Below, piece by piece: positions 14,054 through 30,791 of a DNA stretch of 64,000 nucleotides; position 1 is the stretch's first letter, and every line of letters starts with the position of its first letter. The DNA is from a bacterium (GTDB lineage: Bacteria > Electryoneota > RPQS01): NCBI GenBank assembly GCA_023382385.1, contig JAHDVH010000003.1, forward strand, positions 342,806 to 406,805. The letters are read 5' to 3'. The notes beneath the pieces were generated by a model, which was not told the origin of the DNA, ran no database searches, and saw only the letters and a program-made list of their open reading frames with translations. The translations under genes and the position numbers were made by a program.

Positions 14054-15007
14054 ATGAAGATTAATCGTCGTAACTTCCTGAAACTTGCCGGACTTGCCAC
14101 CGCTAATGTGGCCGTCGGCACGCTGCCGGGCAAAGCCGTCGCCTCCCCCGGCCACTTTACGGGTCACCCCGAACGGCGCGGCGTACTTGTGGACACCACA
14201 CAGTGCATCGGACTGAACTGCCGACGCTGTGAACTTGCCTGTGCCAAAGAGCACAACCTGCCGACGCCGGAAAAAGCTCCCGAAGATCCCACCGTCTTCG
14301 ACAAGAGACGACGGACACACGCCGACCAGTTCACCGTCGTCAATCGCTTCAAGGGACAGTCGCCTGAAACCCCGATCTACGCCAAGAAGCAGTGCATGCA
14401 CTGCGATGAACCGGCGTGTGCTTCCGCGTGTCTGGTCGGCGCATTTTCCAAAACGCCAAGCGGCGCAGTCGAGTATGATGCCAGCGTCTGCATCGGCTGC
14501 CGATACTGCATGGTCGCCTGTCCCTTTGATATTCCCACGTACGAGTATTTCAGTGCACTTCACCCTCGGGTTCGCAAGTGCACTTTTTGTTTTGAATCGC
14601 GGCTCCAGCAGGGCAAACCGCCTGCCTGTGTCGAAGCCTGTCCTCGCGAAGTCATGACGTTCGGCCGCAGGGAAGACTTGATCAAAGTCGCACGACAAAA
14701 GATTGTCCGAAGTCCCAACCGATACGTCGATCACATCTATGGTGAACACGAAGTCGGCGGCACAAGCTGGATGTATCTCTCGTCCGTGCCGTTTGACCAA
14801 ATCGGCTTCCGCACGGATCTGGGGACCACTCCCTACCCCGAACTGACGCGCAACTACCTGTCGGCCGCGCCGCTGGTCATGGCGATTTGGCCGACGTTCT
14901 TCCTGAGCATCTATCTGTTCACCAAACGCAAGGAGGAACTCGCCGCTGAACAGCGCCTGCTGAATCCCTCTGCGGACGGAAATCACAGAACCAAGGAGGA
15001 CAAGTAA
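14054..15007 (+). CDS. periplasm-facing iron-sulfur subunit, HybA/HmcB-like, with Tat signal
   Basis: 317 residues. The Tat signal RRNFLKLAG opens the protein. Four cysteine clusters follow, each typical of a [4Fe-4S] site: CIGLNCRRCELAC, CMHCDEPACASAC, CIGCRYCMVAC and the pair CTFC...CVEAC. A single C-terminal membrane segment (LVMAIWPTFFLSIYLF) anchors it. This is the build of HybA and HmcB, which pass electrons between multiheme cytochromes and a membrane NrfD-type subunit. The stop overlaps the next start by one base (TAATG), which indicates translational coupling. A CRP-like site lies just upstream. Confidence 0.9.
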   Translation: MKINRRNFLKLAGLATANVAVGTLPGKAVASPGHFTGHPERRGVLVDTTQCIGLNCRRCELACAKEHNLPTPEKAPEDPTVFDKRRRTHADQFTVVNRFKGQSPETPIYAKKQCMHCDEPACASACLVGAFSKTPSGAVEYDASVCIGCRYCMVACPFDIPTYEYFSALHPRVRKCTFCFESRLQQGKPPACVEACPREVMTFGRREDLIKVARQKIVRSPNRYVDHIYGEHEVGGTSWMYLSSVPFDQIGFRTDLGTTPYPELTRNYLSAAPLVMAIWPTFFLSIYLFTKRKEELAAEQRLLNPSADGNHRTKEDK

Positions 15008-16245
15008 TGGCTACTGTCCTCGCTCCTCCTGCTCACCTGCGTCCTACGCCGAACTTCGTTCGTGATAAGCTGCTGCTCGGCATGACGCCGCGCGAGTATC
15101 TCAAGAGTTTGATGACTCCCGGACATTACATTGCCGCACTGATTCTGGCTGTCGGAATTCCCGTCACCTATCAACGCTTCACCGGAGGTATCGGCGCGAT
15201 TTCCAACCTTACCGACGCCAATCCGTGGGGTATCTGGATCGGTATCGATGTGCTCTGCGGGGTCGCGCTGGCTGCCGGAGGATTCATCATCGGCTCCATC
15301 TACCACATCTTCGGTATGCACGAATACAAACCGCTCGTGCGTCCGGCCATACTCACGGGCTTTCTCGGCTACGCGCTCGTCGTGTTCGGTTTGATGTTCG
15401 ACTTGGGCCGCCCGTGGCGTCTCCCCTATCCGATGGTCTGGTCATTCGGCACAAGCTCAGTCATGTTTGAAGTCGGCTGGTGTGTCGCACTGTATTTGTT
15501 CTGTCAGTTCATTGAATTCTGGCCGCCGCTCTTCGAGTGGATTGGAGCCAAACGCGCGCGTGCCTTTGCCGTCAAGCTGACGCTCGGTGCGACGGTGATG
15601 GCCGTGGTCCTTTCGACGCTGCACCAATCATCACTTGGCGCGCTCTTCCTGATTATGCCGTCCAAGCTGCATCCGCTGTGGTACAGCATGTATCTGCCGG
15701 TCTTCTTCCTGATTTCGGCAGTCTCGGGCGGAATCGGAATGATCATCTTCGAAGCCACCATGTCCCACCGCTACTTCAAGATGCAAACTGGACATCTGAG
15801 TCATCGCGAGCTTGACAAGCTCATTCTCGGGTTGGCAAAGGGTGGTGCGCTTGTTCTTTATCTCTACTTCTGGCTCAAGATCATCGGCGTGGCGCATGAA
15901 CACCAGTGGGCATTGATTGCCACCGGATGGGGAGCGTGGTGGCTCGTGGAAGTCGTCGGCTTTATCCTGCTCCCGGCCTTCATGTTCCTGTTCGCTGTGC
16001 GCAGACTGAGTCCGACCCTCGCTCGCATTGCCGCCGTCTGGACCGTGTTGGGACTCATCCTCAACCGGGTAAACGTTTCCATCATCGCACTGAACTGGTA
16101 TGCCGAGGAACGCTACATCCCGCATTGGAAGGAAATTACCGTCACTTTGATGATTATCACAATCGGCGTGTTAGTCTTTAAGTTCATCGTGAATCGCATG
16201 CCGATTCTCCTGCAGCATCCTGATTATGCGGGCGACAGCCATTAA
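15007..16245 (+). CDS. NrfD/HybB/HmcC-type integral membrane quinone-interacting subunit
   Basis: 412 residues with about ten hydrophobic segments and no cofactor motif. The opening region (SLMTPGHYIAALILAVGIP) and the repeated helical layout match the NrfD/HybB (polysulfide reductase membrane subunit) family, which exchanges electrons with the quinone pool or moves protons. It is fused by a TAATG junction to the iron-sulfur subunit and is followed 15 nt later by a small membrane peptide, in the order HmcB-HmcC-HmcD of sulfate reducers. Confidence 0.9.
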   Translation: MATVLAPPAHLRPTPNFVRDKLLLGMTPREYLKSLMTPGHYIAALILAVGIPVTYQRFTGGIGAISNLTDANPWGIWIGIDVLCGVALAAGGFIIGSIYHIFGMHEYKPLVRPAILTGFLGYALVVFGLMFDLGRPWRLPYPMVWSFGTSSVMFEVGWCVALYLFCQFIEFWPPLFEWIGAKRARAFAVKLTLGATVMAVVLSTLHQSSLGALFLIMPSKLHPLWYSMYLPVFFLISAVSGGIGMIIFEATMSHRYFKMQTGHLSHRELDKLILGLAKGGALVLYLYFWLKIIGVAHEHQWALIATGWGAWWLVEVVGFILLPAFMFLFAVRRLSPTLARIAAVWTVLGLILNRVNVSIIALNWYAEERYIPHWKEITVTLMIITIGVLVFKFIVNRMPILLQHPDYAGDSH

Positions 16246-16260
16246 GGAAGGATGATATCC

Positions 16261-16383
16261 ATGTATACATTACATGACTTTACTGTTCTGACACAGACGG
16301 GTGAATATCTTGTCGCCATCCTCGGTCTGTTATCGTTTGTCCCATTTTGGAAAGCTTTGAATCAACGACCCAAGCGCCACTAA
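16261..16383 (+). CDS. 40-residue single-span membrane peptide, HmcD-like
   Basis: A short gene, MYTLHDFTVLTQ... to ...NQRPKRH, with one hydrophobic helix (about residues 16-29) and a basic tail. It begins 15 nt after the NrfD-type gene and has an AAGGAAGG ribosome site. The Hmc complex of Desulfovibrio has a similarly tiny membrane subunit, HmcD, in the same position between HmcC and later redox genes. The assignment rests on position, size and topology rather than detectable sequence motifs. Confidence 0.6.
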   Translation: MYTLHDFTVLTQTGEYLVAILGLLSFVPFWKALNQRPKRH

Positions 16384-16412
16384 TCGCGCTGTCGAGTCGG
16401 AGAATTCCGGCC

Positions 16413-17522
16413 ATGAAATATTACATATTCTTGCTTATCGCCAGTTTTACGCTTGTGCTCTCCAGCGAGCGCGCCGAAGCCGTCTCGCAGCAACCCGGCG
16501 CGTCCAATGGCTGCTCGCAATGTCACGTCTGCCGGACACCTACGGCGGACGACCCTTGCCTCCGTATCTGCCCGCGACCGCGCGTCACCCCGCAAGATCT
16601 GAAGATGGGGCCGGATGAAGTGCTCATCAACGAACTCGAGAATGAGTACGAAGCCGTTCGTTTTTCGCATCGCCTGCATGCGGAAATGACCGCGATGGAT
16701 CGCGGATGTCAGGATTGTCACCACTTCCAGCAGGTCGGCGGCATCACCGCCTGCAAAGATTGTCATCCCCCGCACATCGCCGACGAAAATCTCGAACAGC
16801 CGGGCCTGAAAGGTGCCTATCATCGGCAATGTCTTGGCTGCCATCAGGATTGGAGTCACGACACGTCCTGCGAAATCTGCCACCTGAAGAAGGGACAAGA
16901 GACGGCGACGCATCCGCTGCCTAAGCGTTCGCCCGGAAGCAAATTCGCCGGACTCGTCGAACCTGAAAAGAAGGTCTGGCATTCGTCCTATGGCGGCGGA
17001 ACGATTGTCACGCTGTTTCACAGAAATCACACCGAGAAATACGGCATCTCGTGTGCATCGTGCCATCATGCTGAAGGCTGCGCGTCGTGTCATTCGAAAT
17101 CCGAGCAAACCACCACGTCCATTCGCCACAGCGAAGAAGCTTTGCACGGCATCTGCAATTCCTGTCACTCGGAGATGAGCTGCAATCAGTGTCACATGAA
17201 AACGGAAGCCGTTGAGTTTTCTCACGACCGGACGGGGTGGCCGCTCAAGTTCTACCACGAACGACTGTCGTGCCGCCGGTGTCACGGCAATCCGAATCAC
17301 TTTACGAAACCGTCGCGCGACTGCAATAGTTGCCACAAGGACTGGGCCGTCGGCACGTTCAAACACGCGCACACCGGCTACGGATTGAACGACACGCATG
17401 CTGAAATCTCCTGCGAGGAATGCCACGTCGGGAAGAATTTCGCGGTCAAACCGACCTGCAATTCGTGTCACGACAACGACATTACATATCCTGCATCGCA
17501 ACCCGGTGGAAGATTGAGATAA
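16413..17522 (+). CDS. 13-heme periplasmic c-type cytochrome (class III-like)
   Basis: 369 residues with a signal peptide (MKYYIFLLIASFTLVLSSERAEA). Thirteen CxxCH sites run from CSQCH to CNSCH, with many extra His residues such as FSHRLH and LFHRNH that resemble the sixth ligands of cytochrome c3/c7 modules. I start it at the ATG after which the signal peptide begins; a longer reading from 16347 would overlap the 40-residue gene. In Hmc the large HmcA cytochrome has 16 hemes; this may be its counterpart. It most likely takes electrons from, or gives them to, the HybA-like subunit. Confidence 0.88.
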   Translation: MKYYIFLLIASFTLVLSSERAEAVSQQPGASNGCSQCHVCRTPTADDPCLRICPRPRVTPQDLKMGPDEVLINELENEYEAVRFSHRLHAEMTAMDRGCQDCHHFQQVGGITACKDCHPPHIADENLEQPGLKGAYHRQCLGCHQDWSHDTSCEICHLKKGQETATHPLPKRSPGSKFAGLVEPEKKVWHSSYGGGTIVTLFHRNHTEKYGISCASCHHAEGCASCHSKSEQTTTSIRHSEEALHGICNSCHSEMSCNQCHMKTEAVEFSHDRTGWPLKFYHERLSCRRCHGNPNHFTKPSRDCNSCHKDWAVGTFKHAHTGYGLNDTHAEISCEECHVGKNFAVKPTCNSCHDNDITYPASQPGGRLR

Positions 17523-17526
17523 TTCC

Positions 17527-20007
17527 ATGAAACGAGCACTTCTTACTCTCCTGCTTGTTGCCTGTTTCGGCACGCTGGCTTACGCAAACAAAGACAAAGA
17601 CGCGGCCTGCATCGAGTGTCACTCCGACGCGACGCTGACACGGACGAATCGAGACGGTTCCATCGTGTCGCTGGCCGTGACCCCGGACTCGCTCGCTCGC
17701 TCGAAACACGCTTCGCTCGCCTGTGTGGACTGCCACGCCGATTTGAAGAACTTTGATGACTGGCCGCACGCCGAACGACTGGCAGCCGTGAGCTGCGCAA
17801 GCTGTCACAAGGAAGCTGCGACGGAAGTTGCCATGGGCGGACATGAAGGTGTCTTGAAGTGCGCATCATGTCATGGAACCCATAACATATTGGATACCAA
17901 AGACCCGCGGTCAATGGTCTCAAAAGAGAAAATAGATCGCAGCTGCGAGCAGTGCCATAACAGGATGCATCCCCCTCATCGCGGACGTACCACCGTCTAT
18001 GAAAGCTACGACGTCGGCATTCATGGAAGGCTCGCAAAACTTGGAAAACAGGGTCTGCCCTCCTGCACGGATTGCCACTCGTCGCACGCCGTGCACGCGG
18101 AAGATCGCCAACCCGAAAAGCTTGAACAATCCTGTTTGAACTGCCACAGTGAGATCGTCGCGGAATTCAAGAAGTCGGTGCACGGTCAGTTCCGCGATGG
18201 CAGAAATCTCTCGCACTGTTTCGATTGTCACGGTGAACATCGCAGCCGCGCGCCATCAGACTCTACCTTGCGCGTGACAAACGAGTCACCGGCCGAGGCG
18301 ACCTGCGGCGCCTGCCACGAAGAGTCCGTGAGGCTTTACAATCAGAGCTTGCATGCGTATGCGCTGCAGAGCGGTTCTCCACGCGCACCGCGCTGTGAAA
18401 GCTGTCACGGCGCACATAACATCCGCAAAGTGGACGACCCCGAATCGCCGATGCACCGCTCAAAACAGGTCGAGACATGCGCAAAGTGTCATAGCCAGAT
18501 CGGCATCGCGCTCGATCCTGAAGTGCGGCTGCCGCGATCTTTCGAAAACTATCTCGAAAGCACGCACGGCAAACTTCTGAAGCAGGGCAACGAGAACGTT
18601 CCTGTCTGCATCGATTGTCACGGCGGTCACGCGGTGCTTGGCAGCACGAACCCGCTGTCCACAATTACGCTGACTAACATTCACAAGACCTGCGGACAGT
18701 GCCATCCGAAAGAACAGCAGCTTTACGAAGTTTCCATTCACTACCGCGCACTGATGAGCGGCATCACGGACAGCCCGACGTGCACAGGATGTCATGGTGA
18801 GCACTTGATGGTTTCGCCGAAGGATCCGAAGAGCAAGGTCAGTCACGCGCGAATCGCGGCGGAAACGTGCGGAAAGTGTCACGAAAACCCCGATATCATT
18901 CGCAAGTATGGATTGGCCCCGGACGTGGTCTCAACATATACAGACAGTTATCACGGTCTGGCCACGCGGGCAAGAAACCGGAAAACTCCCTCGTGTGCAG
19001 ATTGCCACGGTGCGCACGACGTGAGAACTGCGGCAGACCCGCTGTCCTCCATTCATGAAGCCAACGTCGTGCAGACCTGCGCGACTTGCCATCCCCGAGC
19101 GGATGCGAAGTTCGCGGCATCTTATACTCACCGTGCCTTGCAGCCGCGCGAGGGCGGGGCTCAATGGTGGATTGCGCGGATCTATTGGATTCTGATTTTT
19201 GCGGTTATCGGCGGAATGGTCCTGCACAACCTGATCATCCTGAACTATCATATGATCAAGGCGCGCGAGCATCAAACCAGCGGTCCGAAAGTCACGAGAT
19301 TTGACCGGCATCAGATCATTCAACACTTGGTCCTCTCGTTCACGTTTATTCTGCTCGCAATAACGGGATTTGCTCTGAAGTATCCGGACGCGTGGTGGGT
19401 CAGGATGCTCGCTTCGATCGGCTTCAGCGAAGGCATTCGCAGTGTCACGCATCGCGTCATGGCAGTAGGTTTGATCGCGTGCTCGATCTATCACATCGTC
19501 TATCTGTTCTGGACAAGGCGCGGCCGTGAAGAGTGGCAGGCACTGATACCGGCTAAGACGGATGTCAGCGACTTGACCGAGAATCTCTCCTATCACATGC
19601 AGAAGCGCAAGGATCCGCCGAAGTTTGATCGTTATGATTACTCACAGAAGGCGGAGTATTGGGCGCTGATCTGGGGAACAATCCTGATGATTGCTACTGG
19701 ATTTGTGCTGTGGTTCCCCGCAGAACTTTCTCCGATTCTTCCGGCGTGGGCGATTCCGGTCAGCCAGACCATCCACCTCTATGAAGCATGGCTCGCGACG
19801 CTTGCGATCGTTGTGTGGCACTTCTTCTTCGTCATCTTCCATCCCGAGGAGTATCCCATGAGCTGGACATGGTTGACGGGCAAGATTCCGCTGCATCTTG
19901 TCAAGCATCGTCACGGCCGCTGGTACGAGAAAATTACAGCCGGAAAGACCGACGTTGAGACGAGCGAGACTGAGGCGCCCAAGCCAACTGAACCCGCATC
20001 AGAATAA
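17527..20007 (+). CDS. 17-heme cytochrome c fused to membrane cytochrome b
   Basis: 826 residues. A signal peptide (MKRALLTLLLVACFGTLAYA) is followed by seventeen CxxCH sites within about residues 30-525, many in the repeated form CxxCHGxH. The C-terminal 280 residues hold five hydrophobic segments with paired histidines (VTHRVMA, SIYHIVY, VVWHFFF) typical of the cytochrome b561/NarI-type di-heme family. The protein can therefore link the quinone pool directly to a long periplasmic heme wire. It starts 4 nt after the 13-heme gene. A similar gene follows 11 nt downstream. Confidence 0.9.
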   Translation: MKRALLTLLLVACFGTLAYANKDKDAACIECHSDATLTRTNRDGSIVSLAVTPDSLARSKHASLACVDCHADLKNFDDWPHAERLAAVSCASCHKEAATEVAMGGHEGVLKCASCHGTHNILDTKDPRSMVSKEKIDRSCEQCHNRMHPPHRGRTTVYESYDVGIHGRLAKLGKQGLPSCTDCHSSHAVHAEDRQPEKLEQSCLNCHSEIVAEFKKSVHGQFRDGRNLSHCFDCHGEHRSRAPSDSTLRVTNESPAEATCGACHEESVRLYNQSLHAYALQSGSPRAPRCESCHGAHNIRKVDDPESPMHRSKQVETCAKCHSQIGIALDPEVRLPRSFENYLESTHGKLLKQGNENVPVCIDCHGGHAVLGSTNPLSTITLTNIHKTCGQCHPKEQQLYEVSIHYRALMSGITDSPTCTGCHGEHLMVSPKDPKSKVSHARIAAETCGKCHENPDIIRKYGLAPDVVSTYTDSYHGLATRARNRKTPSCADCHGAHDVRTAADPLSSIHEANVVQTCATCHPRADAKFAASYTHRALQPREGGAQWWIARIYWILIFAVIGGMVLHNLIILNYHMIKAREHQTSGPKVTRFDRHQIIQHLVLSFTFILLAITGFALKYPDAWWVRMLASIGFSEGIRSVTHRVMAVGLIACSIYHIVYLFWTRRGREEWQALIPAKTDVSDLTENLSYHMQKRKDPPKFDRYDYSQKAEYWALIWGTILMIATGFVLWFPAELSPILPAWAIPVSQTIHLYEAWLATLAIVVWHFFFVIFHPEEYPMSWTWLTGKIPLHLVKHRHGRWYEKITAGKTDVETSETEAPKPTEPASE

Positions 20008-20018
20008 ACGACAAGCTC

Positions 20019-22517
20019 ATGAGACTACTTGCCAGACCCATTCCCGTCCTGCTCTTCATGCTGTCGCTGGTTTGCCTCGTGGCACGGGCGCAGACCAACA
20101 ACGACTGCATGGAGTGCCATAGCGATCCGACGCTGACGATGGAGACGCTGACCGGCTCCAAGTCACTCACCGTGACGACTGACAGCCTGAAGCGTTCCGT
20201 TCATGCAGGTCTCGATTGCATCGACTGCCACGGCGATCTGAAGGGTGCGGACTTTCCGCACGAGCGACCACGCCATGTGAACTGCGGCGAGTGTCACGAA
20301 GCTGCGATGAAGACGTTCATGGCAGGCTTCTTCAATAAGCTGAATGCCATGGGCTTCCGTGGAGTGCCGGAGTGTTCGGACTGTCACGGCACGCACAACA
20401 TTACCGACCATGCGGATTCGCGCAAGGTTTGCGGCATCTGCCACCGCGCAGAACTCGCGGCGTTTGACAAGAGTGTGCATGCGCGGACGGGCAAGGCGGC
20501 CAAGGCGGAAATGAGCTGCACGTCCTGTCACGATCCGCACTTCAAATCCAAACGCGACAGTATGACGGTGGCGCAGTGGCACGAATACAATATTCGCGGC
20601 TGCATGGAGTGCCACAAGAACGAATCACGTAACTATATTGCCAGTCAGCATTATCAGAAACTGAAAGGCGGAAATCTTGACGCGCCGAACTGCGTAACCT
20701 GTCACGGAGAGCATGGAATATTGTCTCCCGAAGATCCGGCTTCGCATACCTCGGTTGAACGTCTTGACGCGCTCTGCGCGACCTGTCACAAGGGCTATGA
20801 AGAGTCGCTGCACCGCAAGGACAGCGTGGACGCGCGGTTGATGACCTGCGTGGCCTGCCACACCGGACATCAGACTCAAATGGTGCATGCGGTAGGCGGA
20901 ATCTTCCGCGAAGAGCTGCCGGCCACCTGCAACCGATGTCACGAGAGTGAGCGCCATGCCAAGGAGTTCCTCGCGCACGGACGGATCATGAGCGCATCGG
21001 AAACGGGCGAACTGGCGAATTGCACACAGTGCCACGTCTACCACTTCAATCGCAAGATAGAGGGACAAAAGCCGATTTCGAACCTTCGCATGCAGTGCGA
21101 GAACTGTCATGCCAAGGAATATCAGGAATACATGCGGTCAGAGCACGGAATAGCCTATGCCAAGGGGCATACGGAGGCTCCGACGTGCGTGACGTGTCAC
21201 GGAGAGAAGGACATCAAGAAAGTCAGCGACGACATGCGGCCGCGGCATATCATTGATATGTGCAGCAAGTGTCACGGCAATCGCGAATTCGCGCTGAAAT
21301 TCCAGCTTAATCCCGAAGTCGTGCGGTCTTATTCCCGCACATATCACGGACAGGCCTACAACCTCGGATATCAGGGTGACGAATTTGCGACGTGTGTGAA
21401 CTGTCACGGCAATCACGACATTCGTTCACAGAATGATCCGGGTTCTTTGGTCAGCCGTGAGAAGATTGTGCAGACGTGCGCACGCTGTCACAAGGACGCG
21501 AACGAGAATTTTGTGCAGTTTCTCTCGCACTACGATCCTCACGGCGGGTCGCTCGGGCCGACTTCACCTCAGAGAAAGGTGAGTCGCGCCGAGAAGTTCA
21601 TGACGTCGCTGCTGCTGTTCGTGTTCGGATTCTTCGGGATTCACACGGTGCTTTGGTTGATCAGAGGATTTGCGGAGGGTCGTCCGAAGCGAACGCCGGA
21701 AGCGATGCGGAAGTGGGTGCGAAGATTTTCGCCGTGGCAGCGGACTTTGCACATCTCGCTGGCCACGAGTTTTCTGGTGCAGGCGATGACGGGCTTGCCG
21801 CTGAAGTTCTCGCACAGCGTGGCCGCATACTGGATCACGAGCAATGTGATGGATCTGCGGACGATGGCGCTCACGCATCGCATCGGTGCGGTGATCATGA
21901 TCGCGACGTTCGTGCTGCACATCTTGAGTCTATTGACTGCGGCCTTCATTCAGCGCAAGCGCGGAATGTTCTACGGTGAGCATTCGATGACACCGCGCCT
22001 GCAGGACGCGAAGGACATGTTCAACCACTTCAAGTGGTTCCTCTGGCTCGGTCCGAAGCCGAAATTCGGCAAATTCACCTACTGGGAGAAGTTCGACTAC
22101 TTCGCAGTATTCTGGGGTGTGATCATCATTGGTTCGAGCGGGTTCATTCTGTGGTTCCCGGAGTATTTTACGAAGCTATTGCCGGGCTGGATGATCAATC
22201 TGGCGCACATCGTCCACAGCGAGGAGGCGTTGCTGGCAACGGCGTTTATCTTCACGGTGCACTTCTTCAACGGGCATCTGAGACCTTCCAAGTTCCCGTT
22301 TGACGACGTGATTCTGACGGGCCGCGAGTCCACCGAAGAGATGGAGCGCGAGCGGCCGCGCGAAATGGCAGAACTCGTTGGTGAAGACAAACTTGACAAG
22401 CATGTGGTTCCGCCGATGAAGCGGTGGCACAAGATCCTACTGACTATCTGGGGATGGAGCGCATTTATCACGGGACTTGTGCTGCTCGTGTTTATCCTGT
22501 ATAGTTTGTTCGGATAG
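20019..22517 (+). CDS. second 17-heme cytochrome c fused to membrane cytochrome b
   Basis: 832 residues, a paralogue of the gene just upstream. Both open with a CxECHSDxTLT motif after the signal peptide and share the heme number (17), the order of CxxCHGxH repeats and the C-terminal di-heme b domain (LTHRIGAVIMIA, FVLHILS, FTVHFFNGHLRP). It has one more terminal hydrophobic helix (IWGWSAFITGLVLLVF). It closes the operon and is followed by a strong terminator. The pair may form a heterodimer or serve different quinones or acceptors (inference). Confidence 0.9.
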   Translation: MRLLARPIPVLLFMLSLVCLVARAQTNNDCMECHSDPTLTMETLTGSKSLTVTTDSLKRSVHAGLDCIDCHGDLKGADFPHERPRHVNCGECHEAAMKTFMAGFFNKLNAMGFRGVPECSDCHGTHNITDHADSRKVCGICHRAELAAFDKSVHARTGKAAKAEMSCTSCHDPHFKSKRDSMTVAQWHEYNIRGCMECHKNESRNYIASQHYQKLKGGNLDAPNCVTCHGEHGILSPEDPASHTSVERLDALCATCHKGYEESLHRKDSVDARLMTCVACHTGHQTQMVHAVGGIFREELPATCNRCHESERHAKEFLAHGRIMSASETGELANCTQCHVYHFNRKIEGQKPISNLRMQCENCHAKEYQEYMRSEHGIAYAKGHTEAPTCVTCHGEKDIKKVSDDMRPRHIIDMCSKCHGNREFALKFQLNPEVVRSYSRTYHGQAYNLGYQGDEFATCVNCHGNHDIRSQNDPGSLVSREKIVQTCARCHKDANENFVQFLSHYDPHGGSLGPTSPQRKVSRAEKFMTSLLLFVFGFFGIHTVLWLIRGFAEGRPKRTPEAMRKWVRRFSPWQRTLHISLATSFLVQAMTGLPLKFSHSVAAYWITSNVMDLRTMALTHRIGAVIMIATFVLHILSLLTAAFIQRKRGMFYGEHSMTPRLQDAKDMFNHFKWFLWLGPKPKFGKFTYWEKFDYFAVFWGVIIIGSSGFILWFPEYFTKLLPGWMINLAHIVHSEEALLATAFIFTVHFFNGHLRPSKFPFDDVILTGRESTEEMERERPREMAELVGEDKLDKHVVPPMKRWHKILLTIWGWSAFITGLVLLVFILYSLFG

Positions 22518-23197: not shown

Positions 23198-24133
23198 TTA
23201 CTGGAAGAAGATGTTTACGACACCATTGACATGCAGCGTATCGCCCGGCAGGAAGATAATCTGATTTGCGTCAAAGTAGTTGGAGTTCGGATCCACGTTG
23301 TGATGACACAAATGACACTGCGGAATTGCGGGATGCGTCGGACTGGCCGGCGGCACCTGATGACAGGAGCGACAGTTGTTAAGAGTCTGCCCCGTGCCCC
23401 ACGTCACGGGAACCAGAGGATCCCCGCCGCGGGCGTTGGAATGACAGTAGGTGGCGCAGTTGCTTTGATTCGTATACGTCGCGGGATATCCGTTAGTAGT
23501 TGATATCCGCGCATCGTCGAAGCGCACGTCCGCAGGCAGCGGGCCGATGTGATCCAATCCACGAACGCGATTGTGGCATTCGGTGCAGGAATAGCGCGTG
23601 TGCGCATAATGAGCACCGGGGTTACGGTCACCGAGCGGATTCTGCGCCGAAGGCGGCATGCCGTGACAGGTGCTGCACGACGCCGGACCTGAGTTCTGCG
23701 TGTGGCAGGTGCGGCAGCTTGCCTCTGTGCGGCCACCTGCGAAATCGACACCGTGACATGCCTGACAGTCTCGGATCGTCTGCCACTCCATTGCGCGAAT
23801 CTCTGCGGCATGTCCCTGCGCGAAGTCGCCCTGATGCGGATACGAGTGACATTCGTAGCACCCGGTCTGCTGCGCCGAGATCGGCGACGGATCGGGACGC
23901 TCACTGGCCGCAGGATCAAAGGGCAGGATGTTGTGACAGCCTGCGCAGCTTTGTCCCTGACTGCCCATCGCAGCCTGACCGTGCCATTCGGGGCTATGCA
24001 CATCCATCCATCCGGTGGGATGCGTCTTGTAGCTTGACGTCACGCGGTCTTCGCTGCAGGAGAGCACGACAACGGCAATCACCGCAATACTGAGCAGCGC
24101 GAAGAGCGCTGACCTTTTGGAATTAGTTTGCAT
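23198..24133 (-). CDS. outer-membrane-type multiheme cytochrome c lipoprotein (8 CxxCH plus 1 CxxxCH)
   Basis: 311 residues with a lipoprotein signal (AVIAVVVLSC). Eight CxxCH sites are present, plus CATYCH, a site with three residues between the cysteines. That region (YCHSNARGG followed by CRSCH and CHLCH) resembles the Geobacter CxxxxCH...CxxCH cytochrome domain. The start overlaps the end of the 11-heme gene by 11 bases, and GAGGTG precedes it. As the last gene after a barrel protein and a periplasmic cytochrome, it could be the outer-face partner of a conduit. Confidence 0.85.
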   Translation of the reverse strand: MQTNSKRSALFALLSIAVIAVVVLSCSEDRVTSSYKTHPTGWMDVHSPEWHGQAAMGSQGQSCAGCHNILPFDPAASERPDPSPISAQQTGCYECHSYPHQGDFAQGHAAEIRAMEWQTIRDCQACHGVDFAGGRTEASCRTCHTQNSGPASCSTCHGMPPSAQNPLGDRNPGAHYAHTRYSCTECHNRVRGLDHIGPLPADVRFDDARISTTNGYPATYTNQSNCATYCHSNARGGDPLVPVTWGTGQTLNNCRSCHQVPPASPTHPAIPQCHLCHHNVDPNSNYFDANQIIFLPGDTLHVNGVVNIFFQ

Positions 24134-25031
24134 GGCACCTCACGCAGGTTGGTTCGCGACGCGGAGTGTCATGACAGGACATACAGCTTTCGAGATCGAA
24201 CTCAGCGGCTTCGGCATGCCGTCCGCCGGTCGCAGTCAGGAAACCCGGGCGGAAGTGGTCGGCGGGCAGAATGTTCATCTGCGCGTGACAGTCCACACAG
24301 AAGCTGCGCTGCTCGTGGCACGTGCCGCACCGGAAGTCGGACAGATGCGCATCGTGGCCGTGACGACTTAAGTAGTTTTTCGGATGCGGGTTGAAGACGG
24401 CGTCGCCCTGATGACAGGACTGGCAATCGAGCTTCGAGCCGCTGATGTGACACATCGAGCAATTTGCGTTGGCAGCGGCAGCTTCAATGCCGTGCCTTTG
24501 ATCCCACATGACGGCGTGATCGTCGGGAACGAGTTTCTCGCCGGGCAGGTGACACGTGTTGCATTCCATCGCGACGGCACGCGTGACGTGGCAGTCCATG
24601 CACTCGGACATCGTCGGGAAGCGTCCGCTCTGTTTTGCGGAGATCGGTTCATCGAGATTGTTGTGACAAGCCGTGCATGCGAGCTTGGCATTACTCAGAT
24701 GACGCTGATGGCCGAAGCCTGGGCTGTAATCGGAGATCACTTTGAGGATGAATCCATCGTAAGGTTCACCGAGCGCGATGCCCTTACCCGCCAAGTCGTT
24801 GTGCTCGTGACAATCGGCACAGGCCGACCACTTGGGCATCAGATTGTCCGTGCCCGCCCTGCTGGTTTCAACTCCGACGTGACAGGCCGAGCACTCGAGT
24901 CCCTGTTCGATGTGCACGGCGTGGCTGAAGGCAGGCGGTGCCGCGCGTTCAGGCTTGGCCACCGCGAATCTGCCGACGATAAAGACCACGATAACGGCGC
25001 AACTCAAGATCAGGAAGATGAATCGTTTCAT
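24123..25031 (-). CDS. 11-heme periplasmic cytochrome c
   Basis: 302 residues. The N-terminal hydrophobic stretch (MKRFIFLILSCAVIVVFIVG) may be a signal peptide or an anchor. Eleven CxxCH sites run from CSACH to CVRCH, five residues from the end. Extra His pairs (FSHAVHIE, FGHQRHLS) look like c3/c7-type ligands. The ATG overlaps the barrel gene stop as ATGA and has a GGAGG site, so translation is coupled. Its position beside a barrel suggests it is the periplasmic donor in a porin-cytochrome complex, as MtrA is with MtrB (inference by analogy; no shared sequence claimed). Confidence 0.88.
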   Translation of the reverse strand: MKRFIFLILSCAVIVVFIVGRFAVAKPERAAPPAFSHAVHIEQGLECSACHVGVETSRAGTDNLMPKWSACADCHEHNDLAGKGIALGEPYDGFILKVISDYSPGFGHQRHLSNAKLACTACHNNLDEPISAKQSGRFPTMSECMDCHVTRAVAMECNTCHLPGEKLVPDDHAVMWDQRHGIEAAAANANCSMCHISGSKLDCQSCHQGDAVFNPHPKNYLSRHGHDAHLSDFRCGTCHEQRSFCVDCHAQMNILPADHFRPGFLTATGGRHAEAAEFDLESCMSCHDTPRREPTCVRCHAN

Positions 25032-26272
25032 GACACACCTCCCAGCATGCGGCGGAAGCTTGTCGTCAGATGGAAGAGCGCGCGCCAATCCTCACTGCGC
25101 AGCGGATCTTTCAAATGCTCAATCCTTGCTCCGATCGACAACATGCGTTGCGGCGACCACGAGAGACCGCCGTAGATGACTTGTGCTTCGGTATTGGGAC
25201 GAATCTCGCTATTCGAACCGCGAGAGTAATCGAACCCGGCCATCCCTTCAAACTCCCGGTAGAGATAACGCGCCTGACCGTAGAAGCCGTCCATGTCGCC
25301 GTCTCCCGCGGAGAGCCAATGCGTGTAGCCGACTTCGGCTTCGGGGATGCCGACGCCGCAGCGAGCTTTGTAGAGCATGTCGTCTTCGGAAAACACCAGA
25401 TAGCCCATACCCGTAGCGTAGATGCCCCGGTTCTTACAGAAAGTCCACTGCGCGCCGCCGCGAGCGGAGGTGGTTTTGGATTCTTCCAAGAACATCGCGA
25501 AGAAGGAGTCTTCAAAGATACGCGGGGTTTGCGTTCGGACATCGGCGGACACCAGCAGTTTGGTCATGGCCTGCCAATAGGCCGTCAGCTGCGCGGTTTC
25601 GATAGACGACTGCATGAGGTTCATGTGCAAGCGGCCACGCAGAGTCACGTCATCGTGAGGTTTGCCCGAAGCGTCGAGACCTGCGCCGCTAAACAGGAGG
25701 TCACCGTCTCTGCCGACATAGTAATAGGACAGACCGAGACGAGTTCCCTGAATGCGTGTGCGCAGATTGACGCCCGCAGCCATTCCCTGATCGTCATTCT
25801 CACCATCAAGCCTCAAGGATGAAGCGAGTCGATATCCAACATAGACGCGCGCATCGGTCCTGCGGTTGAACGTGAAGCTACTCCAGAGACCTGTGACATT
25901 CCCGCGACCGACACCTTCCGTAATCCACTGTTGTCCGCCGCGGATTTCCCACGGGGAATCGGAGGGTTTCCAAATCAGCAGTGCCCGACTGACGCGCACG
26001 GACGCCGAGCTATCGGCGTAGCCGTTCTGATACTCCGCATAGCCGCGCAATGTGCTTTCGAATGACCACGCGCCGCCTCCGCCAAAGCGGTGGACATTGA
26101 GACTGAGCAGCGGCACAACCTGCACACGATCCACGGAGTCGTCACGAACGTACGACCAGAGTCCGAAACGTCCGGAGACGGAGGCCGCTCGCGCGGCCTC
26201 CGTACTCACAAACGTCAAGGCAAGTGAGATCGTCAGGAGGAGAGTGCCCTGCCGAGATATTATGAATCGCAT
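25028..26272 (-). CDS. predicted outer-membrane beta-barrel protein (porin-like)
   Basis: 414 residues with a signal peptide (LLLTISLALTFVSTEAARA) and no cysteine motif. The rest alternates polar and hydrophobic residues in short strands rich in Tyr, Trp and Arg (VYVGYRLASSLRLDG, GLSYYYVGRDGDLLFSG, QARYLYREFEG), as in barrels. I recognise no family. It is coupled by ATGA to the 11-heme gene and sits between cytochrome lipoproteins, which makes a role as a cytochrome sheath likely. It is shorter than MtrB-type barrels (about 690) and closer in size to the Geobacter OmbB porins. Confidence 0.65.
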   Translation of the reverse strand: MRFIISRQGTLLLTISLALTFVSTEAARAASVSGRFGLWSYVRDDSVDRVQVVPLLSLNVHRFGGGGAWSFESTLRGYAEYQNGYADSSASVRVSRALLIWKPSDSPWEIRGGQQWITEGVGRGNVTGLWSSFTFNRRTDARVYVGYRLASSLRLDGENDDQGMAAGVNLRTRIQGTRLGLSYYYVGRDGDLLFSGAGLDASGKPHDDVTLRGRLHMNLMQSSIETAQLTAYWQAMTKLLVSADVRTQTPRIFEDSFFAMFLEESKTTSARGGAQWTFCKNRGIYATGMGYLVFSEDDMLYKARCGVGIPEAEVGYTHWLSAGDGDMDGFYGQARYLYREFEGMAGFDYSRGSNSEIRPNTEAQVIYGGLSWSPQRMLSIGARIEHLKDPLRSEDWRALFHLTTSFRRMLGGVS

Positions 26273-26319
26273 AATTTTGCGACCGTTCTATTGATGAGCG
26301 TCAACAAGTGACGCGAGGT

Positions 26320-28038
26320 TTACTCTGTCCAGGCAGCCATCTTGTTTGAATCCGGAGACGTTATGGCGGCACCACTTGCGTGCAGATAGTCAATCGCGTT
26401 GATCAGCAGCGAGCGCGCATACGGGTAGTTGTGGACGCCCATCGAGCCTTCGTTAGTCACGAAGTACCAAGCGTAGCCGGCTTCGCGCTGGACACGTGTG
26501 GAATTGCTCGCCAAGAAGTTCGGGGAGGTGCCGTTGTTCGGAAGCAGATTGAACAGCGAATCTCTCAGAGCGGCAATTTCCGTACGACGGCCGTGATAGT
26601 CGAAGTCGGCGGGAGTCGCGTGGCAGGTATTGCAGGCCTGCAGATTCGGTGCAAAGCTGTGTCCGTGCAACGGACCGCCGGGCTGACCGAACGGAATCAC
26701 GTAGATGTGGCACTTGACGCACATGTCTTCAAGCGTGCTTTCACCAATCACAACATCGGGCTGGTGCGGCGATTCACGATTGTAGGTGTAGCCCGGGATT
26801 TCATAGGAGCCGTAGCCAACGACCATGTCGGCCTGACAGCTTCCATGCGGGCCGGGGCGCGCGTTTCCGTTGTTGATTTGGCCGAGGACATTGGCTTCAG
26901 TGCGGCGCGCGTGGTGGCACTGGCCGCAGAGCTGGCCTTTGCCGTAGCTGGGAATGCCCATCGCCTCATTGGGAATCTCGAAGCCTTCGGGATGATCCGG
27001 TCCGCCGTAGATGATGTCGAACGGTGCGAGAGCACGCAGATAGCTGGGGTTGTTTTCGGCATCGTGCGAGTGCACATCATGGCAAGTTGCACACGTGACC
27101 TGATAGTGTTCTTCCGGCAACTCACGCGTTGCCCATTCGGCGTCCCAAAGCTTAATGAAGCCTTCGTTCGTATGGCAGTCCATACATCCGGTGCGCGCGA
27201 ATTCAGTATTAAACTCTTCGAGGCCTCCGGCATTCGCAATCGCATGGCCGTGACCGGATTCCATGTATTCTTCGTTCTGGCTGTGGCAACGATTGCAGGC
27301 GTCACCCGTCAGAGCCTTGTGGATGTCCGGTGCATGTCCTGCGAACTGCGGACCCTGTGGAGAGTGGCAGGCTTCGCATTGCACGTTATGCAGCATCGCA
27401 GACGGGAAGTCGTCAAAGCCGCCGTTGTCAATACCGGGGGTTGCGATGGAGCCGTCGAAGTTCACGATGTCGTCGTAGCCCGTGACGTGGCACTGCACGC
27501 AATACGGGTTGTTCGTGACATTGCTCGTGACCAGCGTTTCCCAAGCATTCGCGTGGTGAGTGGTCGACCAGCCGTCTACGTAAGCGGCGTGGCAGTGGCT
27601 GCAGCGATTGGCGTTGTCACCTAAGAAGCTCGGGAAGACAGCGGGGACGTAGGTGTTTACACCGACAGTAACCGTCGCAGTCGCGCTGCCGTCGTTGTCG
27701 GTTACGGTCACTGAGACCTGATACAATCCGATTTCCCGAGGCGGAGAGTAATTCGTTACGGCCATCGTCGGAGTTGCGAGTGTGCCGGTCGCGGCACTCC
27801 ACTGATAGGTCATCGGATCGCCGTTCGGATCGTAGGCACTGACGAACAGCACGGTGCTTTCGCCGGTACCTACCGAATCGGGTGCAGCGACAATAGCGGT
27901 AATAATAGGTGCGGAGTCAGGGTTAAGACCTGCAGGACCCGCAGGACCCTGGTCTCCTTCGCAGCCCATGAAAGCGACGGTCACAACCATGACACTGACG
28001 AGGAGAAATACGGCTGGATGTAATTTTTTTCGATACAT
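26320..28038 (-). CDS. 9-heme cytochrome c lipoprotein with N-terminal PKD/Ig-like domain
   Basis: 572 residues. The lipoprotein signal ends in VAFMGC. A short collagen-like run (GDQGPAGPAG) and a PKD/Ig-like domain (about residues 40-125) follow, then nine CxxCH sites from CSHCH to CNTCH. The heme part has the GxxSxxCxxCH look of the cytochrome c554 group. Surface lipoproteins with this make-up act as terminal extracellular electron transfer cytochromes in other bacteria (inference). It is the first gene of the conduit set and is preceded by about 500 bases with hairpins. Confidence 0.85.
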   Translation of the reverse strand: MYRKKLHPAVFLLVSVMVVTVAFMGCEGDQGPAGPAGLNPDSAPIITAIVAAPDSVGTGESTVLFVSAYDPNGDPMTYQWSAATGTLATPTMAVTNYSPPREIGLYQVSVTVTDNDGSATATVTVGVNTYVPAVFPSFLGDNANRCSHCHAAYVDGWSTTHHANAWETLVTSNVTNNPYCVQCHVTGYDDIVNFDGSIATPGIDNGGFDDFPSAMLHNVQCEACHSPQGPQFAGHAPDIHKALTGDACNRCHSQNEEYMESGHGHAIANAGGLEEFNTEFARTGCMDCHTNEGFIKLWDAEWATRELPEEHYQVTCATCHDVHSHDAENNPSYLRALAPFDIIYGGPDHPEGFEIPNEAMGIPSYGKGQLCGQCHHARRTEANVLGQINNGNARPGPHGSCQADMVVGYGSYEIPGYTYNRESPHQPDVVIGESTLEDMCVKCHIYVIPFGQPGGPLHGHSFAPNLQACNTCHATPADFDYHGRRTEIAALRDSLFNLLPNNGTSPNFLASNSTRVQREAGYAWYFVTNEGSMGVHNYPYARSLLINAIDYLHASGAAITSPDSNKMAAWTE

Positions 28039-28548: not shown

Positions 28549-28857
28549 TTAGTGTCCCGTGGCGCGGTGGTCTCGAATGAAGCGCATGATCTCATCACGT
28601 TCGAAAAGAATGACTTTACGTGATAAGCGCACACATTTCAAGCGATCTTCACGCACCCAACGCATAATTGTGGTACGATGTACACGGCCGAGCATTTCGG
28701 CAGCTTCGGACAGAGTTAGTAGTCCCTGCGGTCCTTCTCCCGGCGCACGCGGCGCGGTCCCACCGTCGGCCCGGGTCACCTTAGCAACGCGAGTTCGCGG
28801 TGCTGTGTTCATGGCTTCTCCTTTCGCGGCAGTCTTCATTGGTTTTCGAGTACTCAT
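28549..28857 (-). CDS. small helix-turn-helix DNA-binding protein (excisionase/MerR-like HTH_17)
   Basis: 102 residues. The C-terminal half is a clear winged HTH of the excisionase type: LLTLSEAAEMLGRVHRTT, then IMRWVREDRLKCVRL and FERDEIMRFI. The N-terminal 45 residues are basic and low in complexity. The ATG overlaps the stop of the 18-heme gene as ATGA. An internal ATG at 28812 has an even better AAGGAG site and would give 87 residues. It may regulate the cytochrome genes around it. No integrase is nearby, so a phage or plasmid origin is not supported. Confidence 0.8.
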   Translation of the reverse strand: MSTRKPMKTAAKGEAMNTAPRTRVAKVTRADGGTAPRAPGEGPQGLLTLSEAAEMLGRVHRTTIMRWVREDRLKCVRLSRKVILFERDEIMRFIRDHRATGH

Positions 28858-30791
28858 TGGGCTGCTCCAAGCGATTCATACCACCGCTTGAATAGTTCTG
28901 GGTTATGAGCGGTACCGCTTCCGTCTTTCTTCAGCAGGTCCGCCAATTGTTGGTATTTTCGATAAGGTTCACTTCCGGCACGGTAAGCTGACATTGCTTT
29001 CTGCACGTTGCGTGCAATTTCCTGTGCATCGGACTTCCACATTTTCAACGTGTCGGCAGTGTTCTCGTCGTGACACGCGATGCAAGACGGCAAAACGTCG
29101 CGTGAAACATGAGTCCCGCTTACGGCATGGCAGTCCGTACAAACGATTTCGAGGTCCATTTTAAATGACGGCTTCGCGCCCGCGAATTCAGGAACGTTGC
29201 CGGCATACACAGCCGCTTGCGTCGTATGACACGTCTTGCAATCTGTCTTCGCCAGTGCAACGGACTCATGGTGGCAGGCGTTGCACTGGTTGCTCGACAT
29301 TTGAATCGCGCCGTGACGGTCCGTCCGTTCCGACACGTGGCAGGCTGTACAGTCACCAGCGCGCGAATGTTTGCTATGGTTAAAGAGCTTGCCGTCATAG
29401 GCCACCACAGCGTTGGCCGCGCCCGGGTGACAGACTGCGCAGGCGTGCCCGGTCGCCGCAGGTGAGCCGGTGATGCGCGCGGTGAGCACGTCCACCAATT
29501 CCGGATTGTGCAACGGATTTCCCCGCCTGTACACATCAATCGCCGCCCGAATCGTGTCTGCTTCCGCAGGACTCAGTGTATGAAGCTTTGCTTCGAGGTC
29601 GCGCAAGCCCTGGGCAATCGTCACTTCCCAACGCGGCCAGAGTCTGTCGAACTCCGCGTCATGACAAGGCGTGCAGGAGGGCGGCTCAGGCTTGCCGCGA
29701 ATCGTGTGCACATCCCCTGTGTGACAGGACGTGCAGGACATTCCGGCACTTGCCATAGACGACGGAGAAGGCGGAATGCCGGGCAACTCGCCGCGCCAAA
29801 CTTTTTCGATGGCGTTATCCGGTTTGCCGTGGCACTGCCCGCAGGTCCGTTCCTGACTGGCAAACGCGACGGCTTCCTTGCCGTGCCTGATTTGAATGTG
29901 ACAAGCCGTGCATTCCACTTTACGATCGGTCACGTGCATCTGATGAACGAATTCGTGATCATCGTAGCGCTCGATGTGAGCGACCTGCGCGTGACAGGAA
30001 TTGCAGCGTTCGCGCGGGACAAAACCGTCGCCTGCAATTTCCGAAACGTGGCAGCTTGAACAATCAATCTTGCGGGCAAGCATCTCGGTATGGTCGTAGC
30101 TCGTGTCCGCGGCGGCCGGTCCGGTCGGGGGATTGTGACAAATCGTGCATGTGGCGAGCGCAGTCACCTGTCCCAGGGAATCCGGCTTGAAGTGGCACAG
30201 GAAACACGTGGACTCGTTGACCGATATGTGCTCGCCTTGAACGATGTTTGCGTGGCACGATGTGCAGCGCAACTGCCGACCGCGCCGGACATTCTCGAGA
30301 TGCGGCTTGTGGTCAAACATCACACCCCGAAAACTCTCGGTGCTCTGCAGCAAGCGAGTGTCATGACAACCGGAACGCAGACAGCTCCTGTCATCGATTT
30401 CCGCCCAAGGCTTTGAGCGCTTATACAGTCCCGTCATATAATTGGTGACCATCGAGATGGCCAAGAACTTCGAGTGAATCGTTCCTTCCAACCCGGGCGG
30501 AATATGGCACTCCGTGCAGGTAACCATACTATGCGTTGATGTTTCCCACGCATCGAAGTAGGGAATCATCACATGACACGACTTACAGAAGTTCGGCTGC
30601 GACGTGACTTTGACAAAGAACAACAAAGAAAACAGAATGACCGCGGCAGAGGCAAACAACACCAAGCCGATGCGTCGCGGTCCGAATTCCATCAATCGCT
30701 TCCAGCCAACGCCAAAAAGCCAGAAAGGAAGTTTGATCGTCTCCCAGCAGGCGATGAAGAATTCGTGCAGAAGGAACTTGAACTTGGACAC
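28854..30791 (-). CDS. membrane-anchored 18-heme cytochrome c with NapC/NrfH-like N-terminus
   Basis: 645 residues. One transmembrane helix (IGLVLFASAAVILFSLLFFV) is followed by a NapC/NrfH-type opening: CKSCHVM, the CxxCHxM form of the NrfH first heme, then CTECHIPPG and the third site CLRSGCH, with four residues between cysteines. Fifteen more CxxCH sites follow, giving 17 CxxCH and one CX4CH. NrfH-like parts oxidise menaquinol; here the quinol dehydrogenase is joined to a long heme chain. It would feed the barrel-associated cytochromes encoded next. No SD-independent start choice is needed, as the helix begins near residue 40. Confidence 0.87.
   Translation of the reverse strand: MSKFKFLLHEFFIACWETIKLPFWLFGVGWKRLMEFGPRRIGLVLFASAAVILFSLLFFVKVTSQPNFCKSCHVMIPYFDAWETSTHSMVTCTECHIPPGLEGTIHSKFLAISMVTNYMTGLYKRSKPWAEIDDRSCLRSGCHDTRLLQSTESFRGVMFDHKPHLENVRRGRQLRCTSCHANIVQGEHISVNESTCFLCHFKPDSLGQVTALATCTICHNPPTGPAAADTSYDHTEMLARKIDCSSCHVSEIAGDGFVPRERCNSCHAQVAHIERYDDHEFVHQMHVTDRKVECTACHIQIRHGKEAVAFASQERTCGQCHGKPDNAIEKVWRGELPGIPPSPSSMASAGMSCTSCHTGDVHTIRGKPEPPSCTPCHDAEFDRLWPRWEVTIAQGLRDLEAKLHTLSPAEADTIRAAIDVYRRGNPLHNPELVDVLTARITGSPAATGHACAVCHPGAANAVVAYDGKLFNHSKHSRAGDCTACHVSERTDRHGAIQMSSNQCNACHHESVALAKTDCKTCHTTQAAVYAGNVPEFAGAKPSFKMDLEIVCTDCHAVSGTHVSRDVLPSCIACHDENTADTLKMWKSDAQEIARNVQKAMSAYRAGSEPYRKYQQLADLLKKDGSGTAHNPELFKRWYESLGAAQ

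What the first reader, a model, noticed from the sequence alone, without database searches (positions are those of the whole stretch)
23198..28038. Candidate porin-cytochrome conduit for extracellular electron transfer
Four overlapping or closely spaced minus-strand genes encode a 9-heme lipoprotein with a PKD-like domain, a barrel protein, an 11-heme periplasmic cytochrome and a 9-heme lipoprotein. ATGA coupling joins barrel and 11-heme genes; an 11-base overlap joins the 11-heme and last lipoprotein genes. This is the logic of MtrCAB and the Geobacter Omb-Oma-Omc sets, but the barrel shows no family I recognise. It may be a new conduit type for an FCB lineage.
Basis: partly seen in the sequence, partly recalled or inferred. 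Interest (0 to 1): 0.75.

Follow-up and report, generated by a model that had tools for sequence, protein, structure and literature searches.

The report
Porin-cytochrome electron conduit, Geobacter/Ignavibacterium kind
These four genes very probably build a wire of heme proteins through the outer membrane, so the bacterium can exchange electrons with something outside the cell; it is a new but ordinary member of the porin-cytochrome conduits already known from Geobacter and Ignavibacterium, not a new type.

Summary
Four minus-strand genes encode a 9-heme PKD lipoprotein, a heme-free barrel, an 11-heme secreted cytochrome and a 9-heme lipoprotein (8 CXXCH plus one CX3CH), with the ATGA and 11-base overlaps as described. 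The conduit reading is supported: AlphaFold gives a 22-stranded barrel (pLDDT 82), and 67 of 70 barrel homologues have a multiheme gene within 300 bp; the other three lie at contig ends. The 'new conduit type' reading is not supported. Pfam and NCBIfam simply lack models for these porins, Geobacter-type ones included. A barrel profile matches OmbB/OmaB/OmcB-like and ExtABCD-like clusters; hhalign gives 100%, E 2.6e-38, 392 columns. Relatives in another FCB phylum match the published Ignavibacterium album cluster, down to its 400-residue, 14-heme cytochrome. It is not MtrB/PioB. What is modestly new is breadth: one barrel subfamily in 25 of 39 genomes of this candidate phylum, mostly vertical in the tree. 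Direction of electron flow and substrate are unknown.

The parts
26320..28038 (-). Outer-membrane lipoprotein cytochrome: collagen-like GPAGPAG linker, PKD domain, 9 CXXCH; probable cell-surface partner
   Evidence: homologues beside the conduit in several families of the phylum; the PKD N-terminus found only in the window genome, G028 and G030
25028..26272 (-). 22-stranded outer-membrane beta-barrel, Pcc porin (OmbB/ExtB superfamily)
   Evidence: AlphaFold pLDDT 81.9, 22 strands; hhalign to Geobacter-type Pcc barrels 100%, E 2.6e-38; 67 of 70 homologues adjacent to multiheme cytochromes
24123..25031 (-). 11-heme secreted (periplasmic) cytochrome, c7-like, predicted to sit in the barrel
   Evidence: 11 CXXCH, Sec signal, ATGA overlap with barrel; heme motifs invariant or nearly so in 12 sequences
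23198..24133 (-). 9-heme outer-membrane lipoprotein cytochrome (8 CXXCH + 1 CX3CH)
   Evidence: lipobox Cys26 invariant in 10 sequences; PF09698/TIGR01904 domain; 11-base overlap
28854..30791 (-). Associated NapC/NirT-type inner-membrane cytochrome with 18 heme motifs, candidate quinol dehydrogenase
   Evidence: PF03264; 17 CXXCH + 1 CX4CH; homologue beside the conduit in G028, G030, G004, G020 and G023
28549..28857 (-). Small HTH (excisionase-like) gene, possible regulator
   Evidence: PF12728; kept at the same place in G028 and G030
20019..22517 (+). Associated CbcL-like protein: 17 CXXCH plus cytochrome b561 domain
   Evidence: PF01292 + multiheme domains, 17 CXXCH; homologues near conduits in other genomes
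17527..20007 (+). Associated CbcL-like protein: 17 CXXCH plus cytochrome b561 domain
   Evidence: PF01292 + multiheme domains, 17 CXXCH; homologues near conduits in other genomes
14054..17522 (+). Associated FeS (Fer4_11) - NrfD - c-type cytochrome genes, candidate quinone-linked module
   Evidence: PF13247, PF03916, PF14522

Best explanation
A trans-outer-membrane porin-cytochrome (Pcc) electron conduit. The 22-stranded barrel (25028-26272) sits in the outer membrane and sheathes the 11-heme c7-like cytochrome (24123-25031), which carries electrons across the membrane between periplasmic carriers and the cell surface. The 9-heme lipoprotein (23198-24133) and the 9-heme PKD lipoprotein (26320-28038) are the outer face and pass electrons to or from an external acceptor or donor. 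The nearby NapC/NirT-type and CbcL-like inner-membrane cytochromes probably link it to the quinone pool. Shown here: gene content, heme motifs, signals, predicted barrel fold, conserved linkage, profile homology to Pcc porins. Inferred: complex formation, insertion of the cytochrome in the barrel, surface exposure, electron direction (outward, respiratory, judged more likely) and substrate.
For: Gene anatomy and overlaps. Barrel model with 22 strands, pLDDT 81.9. The triad is syntenic in relatives; 67 of 70 barrel homologues have a multiheme gene within 300 bp, 68 a downstream homologue of the 11-heme protein, 58 a homologue of the last lipoprotein within 3 kb. Profile homology to barrels in tandem 8-heme / 9-12-heme-lipoprotein clusters (OmbB/OmaB/OmcB-like) and 12-heme / barrel / 5-heme-lipoprotein clusters (ExtABCD-like). 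Relatives match the published I. album cluster. Candidate quinone-linked cytochromes nearby.
Against: Multiheme profiles match each other partly through CXXCH spacing, so cytochrome homology is weaker evidence than barrel homology. ExtI, the porin of a published Geobacter ext cluster, has been implicated in selenite/tellurite reduction (PMC5877670).
Confidence: 0.86

Rival explanations
1. The barrel is a substrate porin, for example for oxyanions such as selenite, and the cytochromes are reductases of what it imports, rather than a wire through it.
For: ExtI, the porin of a Geobacter ext cluster, is implicated in selenite and tellurite reduction (PMC5877670, PMC6148476); G026 carries a rhodanese lipoprotein just upstream of the barrel, the ExtH position.
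Against: The periplasmic cytochrome is kept next to the barrel almost without exception, while no substrate-specific enzyme is; two surface-type lipoprotein cytochromes make sense mainly for an outside partner.
Confidence: 0.08
2. A genuinely new conduit type whose barrel is unrelated to known Pcc or Mtr porins.
For: No Pfam, NCBIfam or PDB sequence match; about 20% identity to barrels outside its own order.
Against: Profile-profile homology over 392 columns to Geobacter-type Pcc barrels; those barrels also lack Pfam/NCBIfam models; clusters of the I. album kind match.
Confidence: 0.04
3. The same conduit runs inward, taking electrons from an external donor (Fe(II), partner cells, a cathode). 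This is compatible with the best explanation except for direction.
For: CbcL/MtoC-type quinone proteins occur in both Fe(III) reducers and Fe(II) oxidisers (PMC6295460); nothing in the sequence fixes direction.
Against: I. album, with the same kind of cluster, is a chemoheterotroph (PMC4245776); PFOR and malic enzyme genes in the window fit heterotrophy, though weakly.
Confidence: 0.2

Closest known systems
Ignavibacterium album Pcc cluster IALB_1837-1840 (Shi et al. 2014, PMC4245776)
   Same: Barrel, then large periplasmic cytochrome, then lipoprotein cytochrome with an atypical heme motif; relatives in G042's phylum match the I. album cluster in order, size and heme number
   Different: 11 hemes instead of 14 in the periplasmic cytochrome; extra PKD lipoprotein upstream; barrel only about 20% identical to the Bacteroidota example L034
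Geobacter OmbB-OmaB-OmcB (Pcc)
   Same: Barrel of about 400 aa homologous by profile; barrel, periplasmic cytochrome, lipoprotein cytochrome in that order
   Different: 8-heme OmaB and a much larger 12-heme OmcB; different lipoprotein family
Geobacter ExtABCD
   Same: Homologous barrel type and two lipoprotein cytochromes (PMC6148476)
   Different: 12-heme ExtA lies upstream of the barrel and a 5-heme lipoprotein follows it
Shewanella MtrCAB
   Same: Same working logic: barrel, periplasmic multiheme insert, surface cytochrome
   Different: MtrB/PioB family absent from all 39 genomes of the phylum; solved MtrB not matched by the profile; 22 strands versus 26 in MtrB (the latter from own knowledge)

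Membership tests
Porin-cytochrome (Pcc) conduit, OmbB/ExtB superfamily | Outer-membrane barrel of about 400 aa with 18-22 strands | tested here: met
   414 aa, 22 strands in the AlphaFold model; range from PMC4245776
Porin-cytochrome (Pcc) conduit, OmbB/ExtB superfamily | Barrel gene paired with a periplasmic multiheme cytochrome of 5-14 hemes | tested here: met
   11 hemes, ATGA overlap; pairing kept in homologues
Porin-cytochrome (Pcc) conduit, OmbB/ExtB superfamily | Outer-membrane lipoprotein cytochrome in the cluster (most cases) | tested here: met
   Two lipoprotein cytochromes; lipobox Cys invariant in homologues of one; localisation itself not tested
Porin-cytochrome (Pcc) conduit, OmbB/ExtB superfamily | Sequence homology of the barrel to known Pcc porins | tested here: met
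   hhalign 100%, E 2.6e-38 to Geobacter-type barrels recognised by anatomy; no named OmbB sequence could be fetched
[quoted passage not shown]
   needs reconstitution or mutants
MtrCAB / MtoAB / PioAB | MtrB/PioB-family barrel (PF11854) | tested here: not met
   no match in window barrel or in 39 genomes of the phylum
MtrCAB / MtoAB / PioAB | 10-heme MtrA-type insert | tested here: not met
   11 hemes; only a weak local match to 6r2q_A
ExtHIJKL | Rhodanese lipoprotein ExtH and pentaheme ExtK | tested here: not met
   absent in the window cluster; a rhodanese lipoprotein was seen beside the barrel in relative G026 and scores far below the ExtH model cut-off

The most novel reading that the evidence does not exclude
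This barrel / 11-14-heme / lipoprotein set is an ancient conduit of the FCB side of the bacterial tree, passed on mostly by descent, with a fast-changing outer face (PKD lipoprotein in one lineage, last lipoprotein grown from 9 to 25 heme motifs by repeat duplication in another).
Probability: 0.35. Interest if true: 0.55.

Novelty: new member of a known kind. Interest (0 to 1): 0.34.

Why it matters
It extends a functionally verified kind of extracellular electron conduit to a little-known FCB-side candidate phylum, where 25 of 39 genomes hold a full-length (or contig-end) barrel homologue. It also shows that these porins are invisible to Pfam and NCBIfam, so annotation pipelines will miss such conduits; a barrel profile like the one built here finds them.

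Tried and rejected
MtrB/PioB membership: rejected. Structure of the 11-heme protein: prediction unusable (pLDDT 50). Foldseek of the barrel against the PDB gave only general barrel matches (OprD, AlgE, MOMP, ushers; TM 0.3-0.6), not informative about family. NCBIfam and Pfam names for the Geobacter-type barrels: none. The promoter/terminator scan gave terminator-like sites at the shuffled rate and promoter-like sites somewhat above it (8 versus 3.5), none just upstream of the first gene; not used.

Full report
Observation. 26320-28038 encodes a 572-residue lipoprotein with a GPAGPAG stretch, a PKD domain and 9 CXXCH; 25028-26272 a 414-residue heme-free barrel with a signal peptide; 24123-25031 a 302-residue secreted protein with 11 CXXCH; 23198-24133 a 311-residue lipoprotein with 8 CXXCH and one CX3CH. 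Barrel and 11-heme genes share ATGA; the last two genes share 11 bases. Ribosome-binding-like GGGAGGT and GAGGTG precede the last two starts. Shuffled versions of the proteins give almost no CXXCH.

The barrel. No Pfam, NCBIfam or PDB sequence matches. With 13 sequences AlphaFold gives 22 strands at pLDDT 81.9. Many homologues end in an aromatic-rich final strand such as RGLLRVKWSF, as BAM substrates do (the BAM rule is established knowledge). Foldseek returns generic barrels.

Distribution and linkage. By single sequence the barrel is found in 13 of 39 genomes of its phylum; by profile in 28, of which 24 are essentially full-length and one (G011) is a long fragment at a contig end. It is also in records labelled Calditrichota, KSB1, Zixiibacteriota and Bacteroidetes (the Zixiibacteriota record is itself a genome of the window's phylum), in 43 of 297 genomes of G042's phylum with strong matches, and in 59 of 297 genomes of G039's phylum, many of these weak or partial. 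In 70 distinct homologues at E below 1e-15, 67 have a multiheme gene within 300 bp on the same strand, 68 a downstream homologue of the 11-heme protein and 58 a homologue of the last lipoprotein within 3 kb; the three exceptions are at contig ends. These genomes were scanned whole, so the profile is selective for conduits rather than for barrels in general; the PDB, rich in barrels, gave no barrel match.

Relation to known conduits. In G039's phylum the profile built without any member of that phylum hits barrels in a tandem cluster barrel / 8-heme / 9-12-heme lipoprotein (L070) and in 12-heme / barrel / 5-heme lipoprotein / lipoprotein clusters (L083, L084), at E between about 1e-23 and 1e-38. 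These are the anatomies published for OmbB-OmaB-OmcB (PMC4245776) and ExtABCD (PMC6148476). hhalign of the two barrel alignments gives 100%, E 2.6e-38, 392 columns. In G042's phylum the usual cluster is 4-heme cytochrome / barrel / about 400-residue 14-heme cytochrome / lipoprotein, as described for IALB_1840 to IALB_1837, where IALB_1838 has 400 residues and 14 hemes and IALB_1837 an atypical motif. A 2020 study calls Ignavibacteria porins OmbB-like (PMC7399161).

Tree. In a tree of 69 barrels the own-phylum barrels form one group (96/90), the G039-phylum barrels another (100/99), and the four groups need 4 changes where 3 is the minimum and shuffles need about 35. This suggests mostly vertical descent. 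One barrel of G042's phylum (L094) falls with KSB1/Calditrichota. The root is a midpoint and the branch to the window's order is long, so age is not shown.

Outer face and inner partners. The PKD lipoprotein has homologues beside conduits in other families of the phylum, with collagen-like starts but no match to the PKD part; the PKD form is confined, among the loci read, to the window genome, G028 and G030. An 18-motif NapC/NirT-type cytochrome lies upstream in the window and next to the cluster in G028, G030, G004, G020 and G023; CbcL-like proteins (multiheme plus cytochrome b561) lie next to the cluster in the window and near conduits elsewhere (architecture as in PMC6295460).

Mechanism. 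Most likely quinol electrons pass from the inner-membrane cytochromes through periplasmic carriers to the 11-heme protein in the barrel, then to the two lipoproteins and an outside acceptor. The steps from complex formation onward are inferred. Direction and substrate are open.

Verdict. A new member of a known kind.

Noticed in passing
own genome G000:C2:360000-369000 (L132) and G000:C4:204000-212543 (L133); same-genus L134: Two further barrels (about 530 aa) directly after giant cytochromes (31 and at least 49 heme motifs), weakly related to the conduit barrel (hhalign 97%, E 1.7e-10); perhaps two more conduits of a less-known kind in the same genome.
   Followed up: partly
L023:11527-13632: In G014 the last lipoprotein has grown to 25 heme motifs by tandem duplication of a roughly 144-base, two-heme unit.
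   Followed up: partly
window 24123-25031 versus L016, L017, L019-L021: Within the order, the 11-heme state is seen only in the window genome, G028 and G030; the others have 12, one heme site being replaced by a CXXCH-less segment.
   Followed up: partly
L028:3641-4621 (G026): A two-domain rhodanese lipoprotein just upstream of the barrel, in the place of ExtH of Geobacter ext clusters.
   Followed up: partly
window 28549-28857: A small excisionase-like HTH gene between the NapC-type cytochrome and the conduit is kept at the same place in G028 and G030; possible regulator.
   Followed up: no
window 14054-22517: FeS - NrfD - cytochrome genes followed by two CbcL-like 17-heme proteins with cytochrome b domains; the last three genes are kept in the same order in G030.
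   Followed up: partly
L094 / L108 (G476): A barrel from G042's phylum groups with KSB1/Calditrichota barrels, a possible gene transfer.
   Followed up: no
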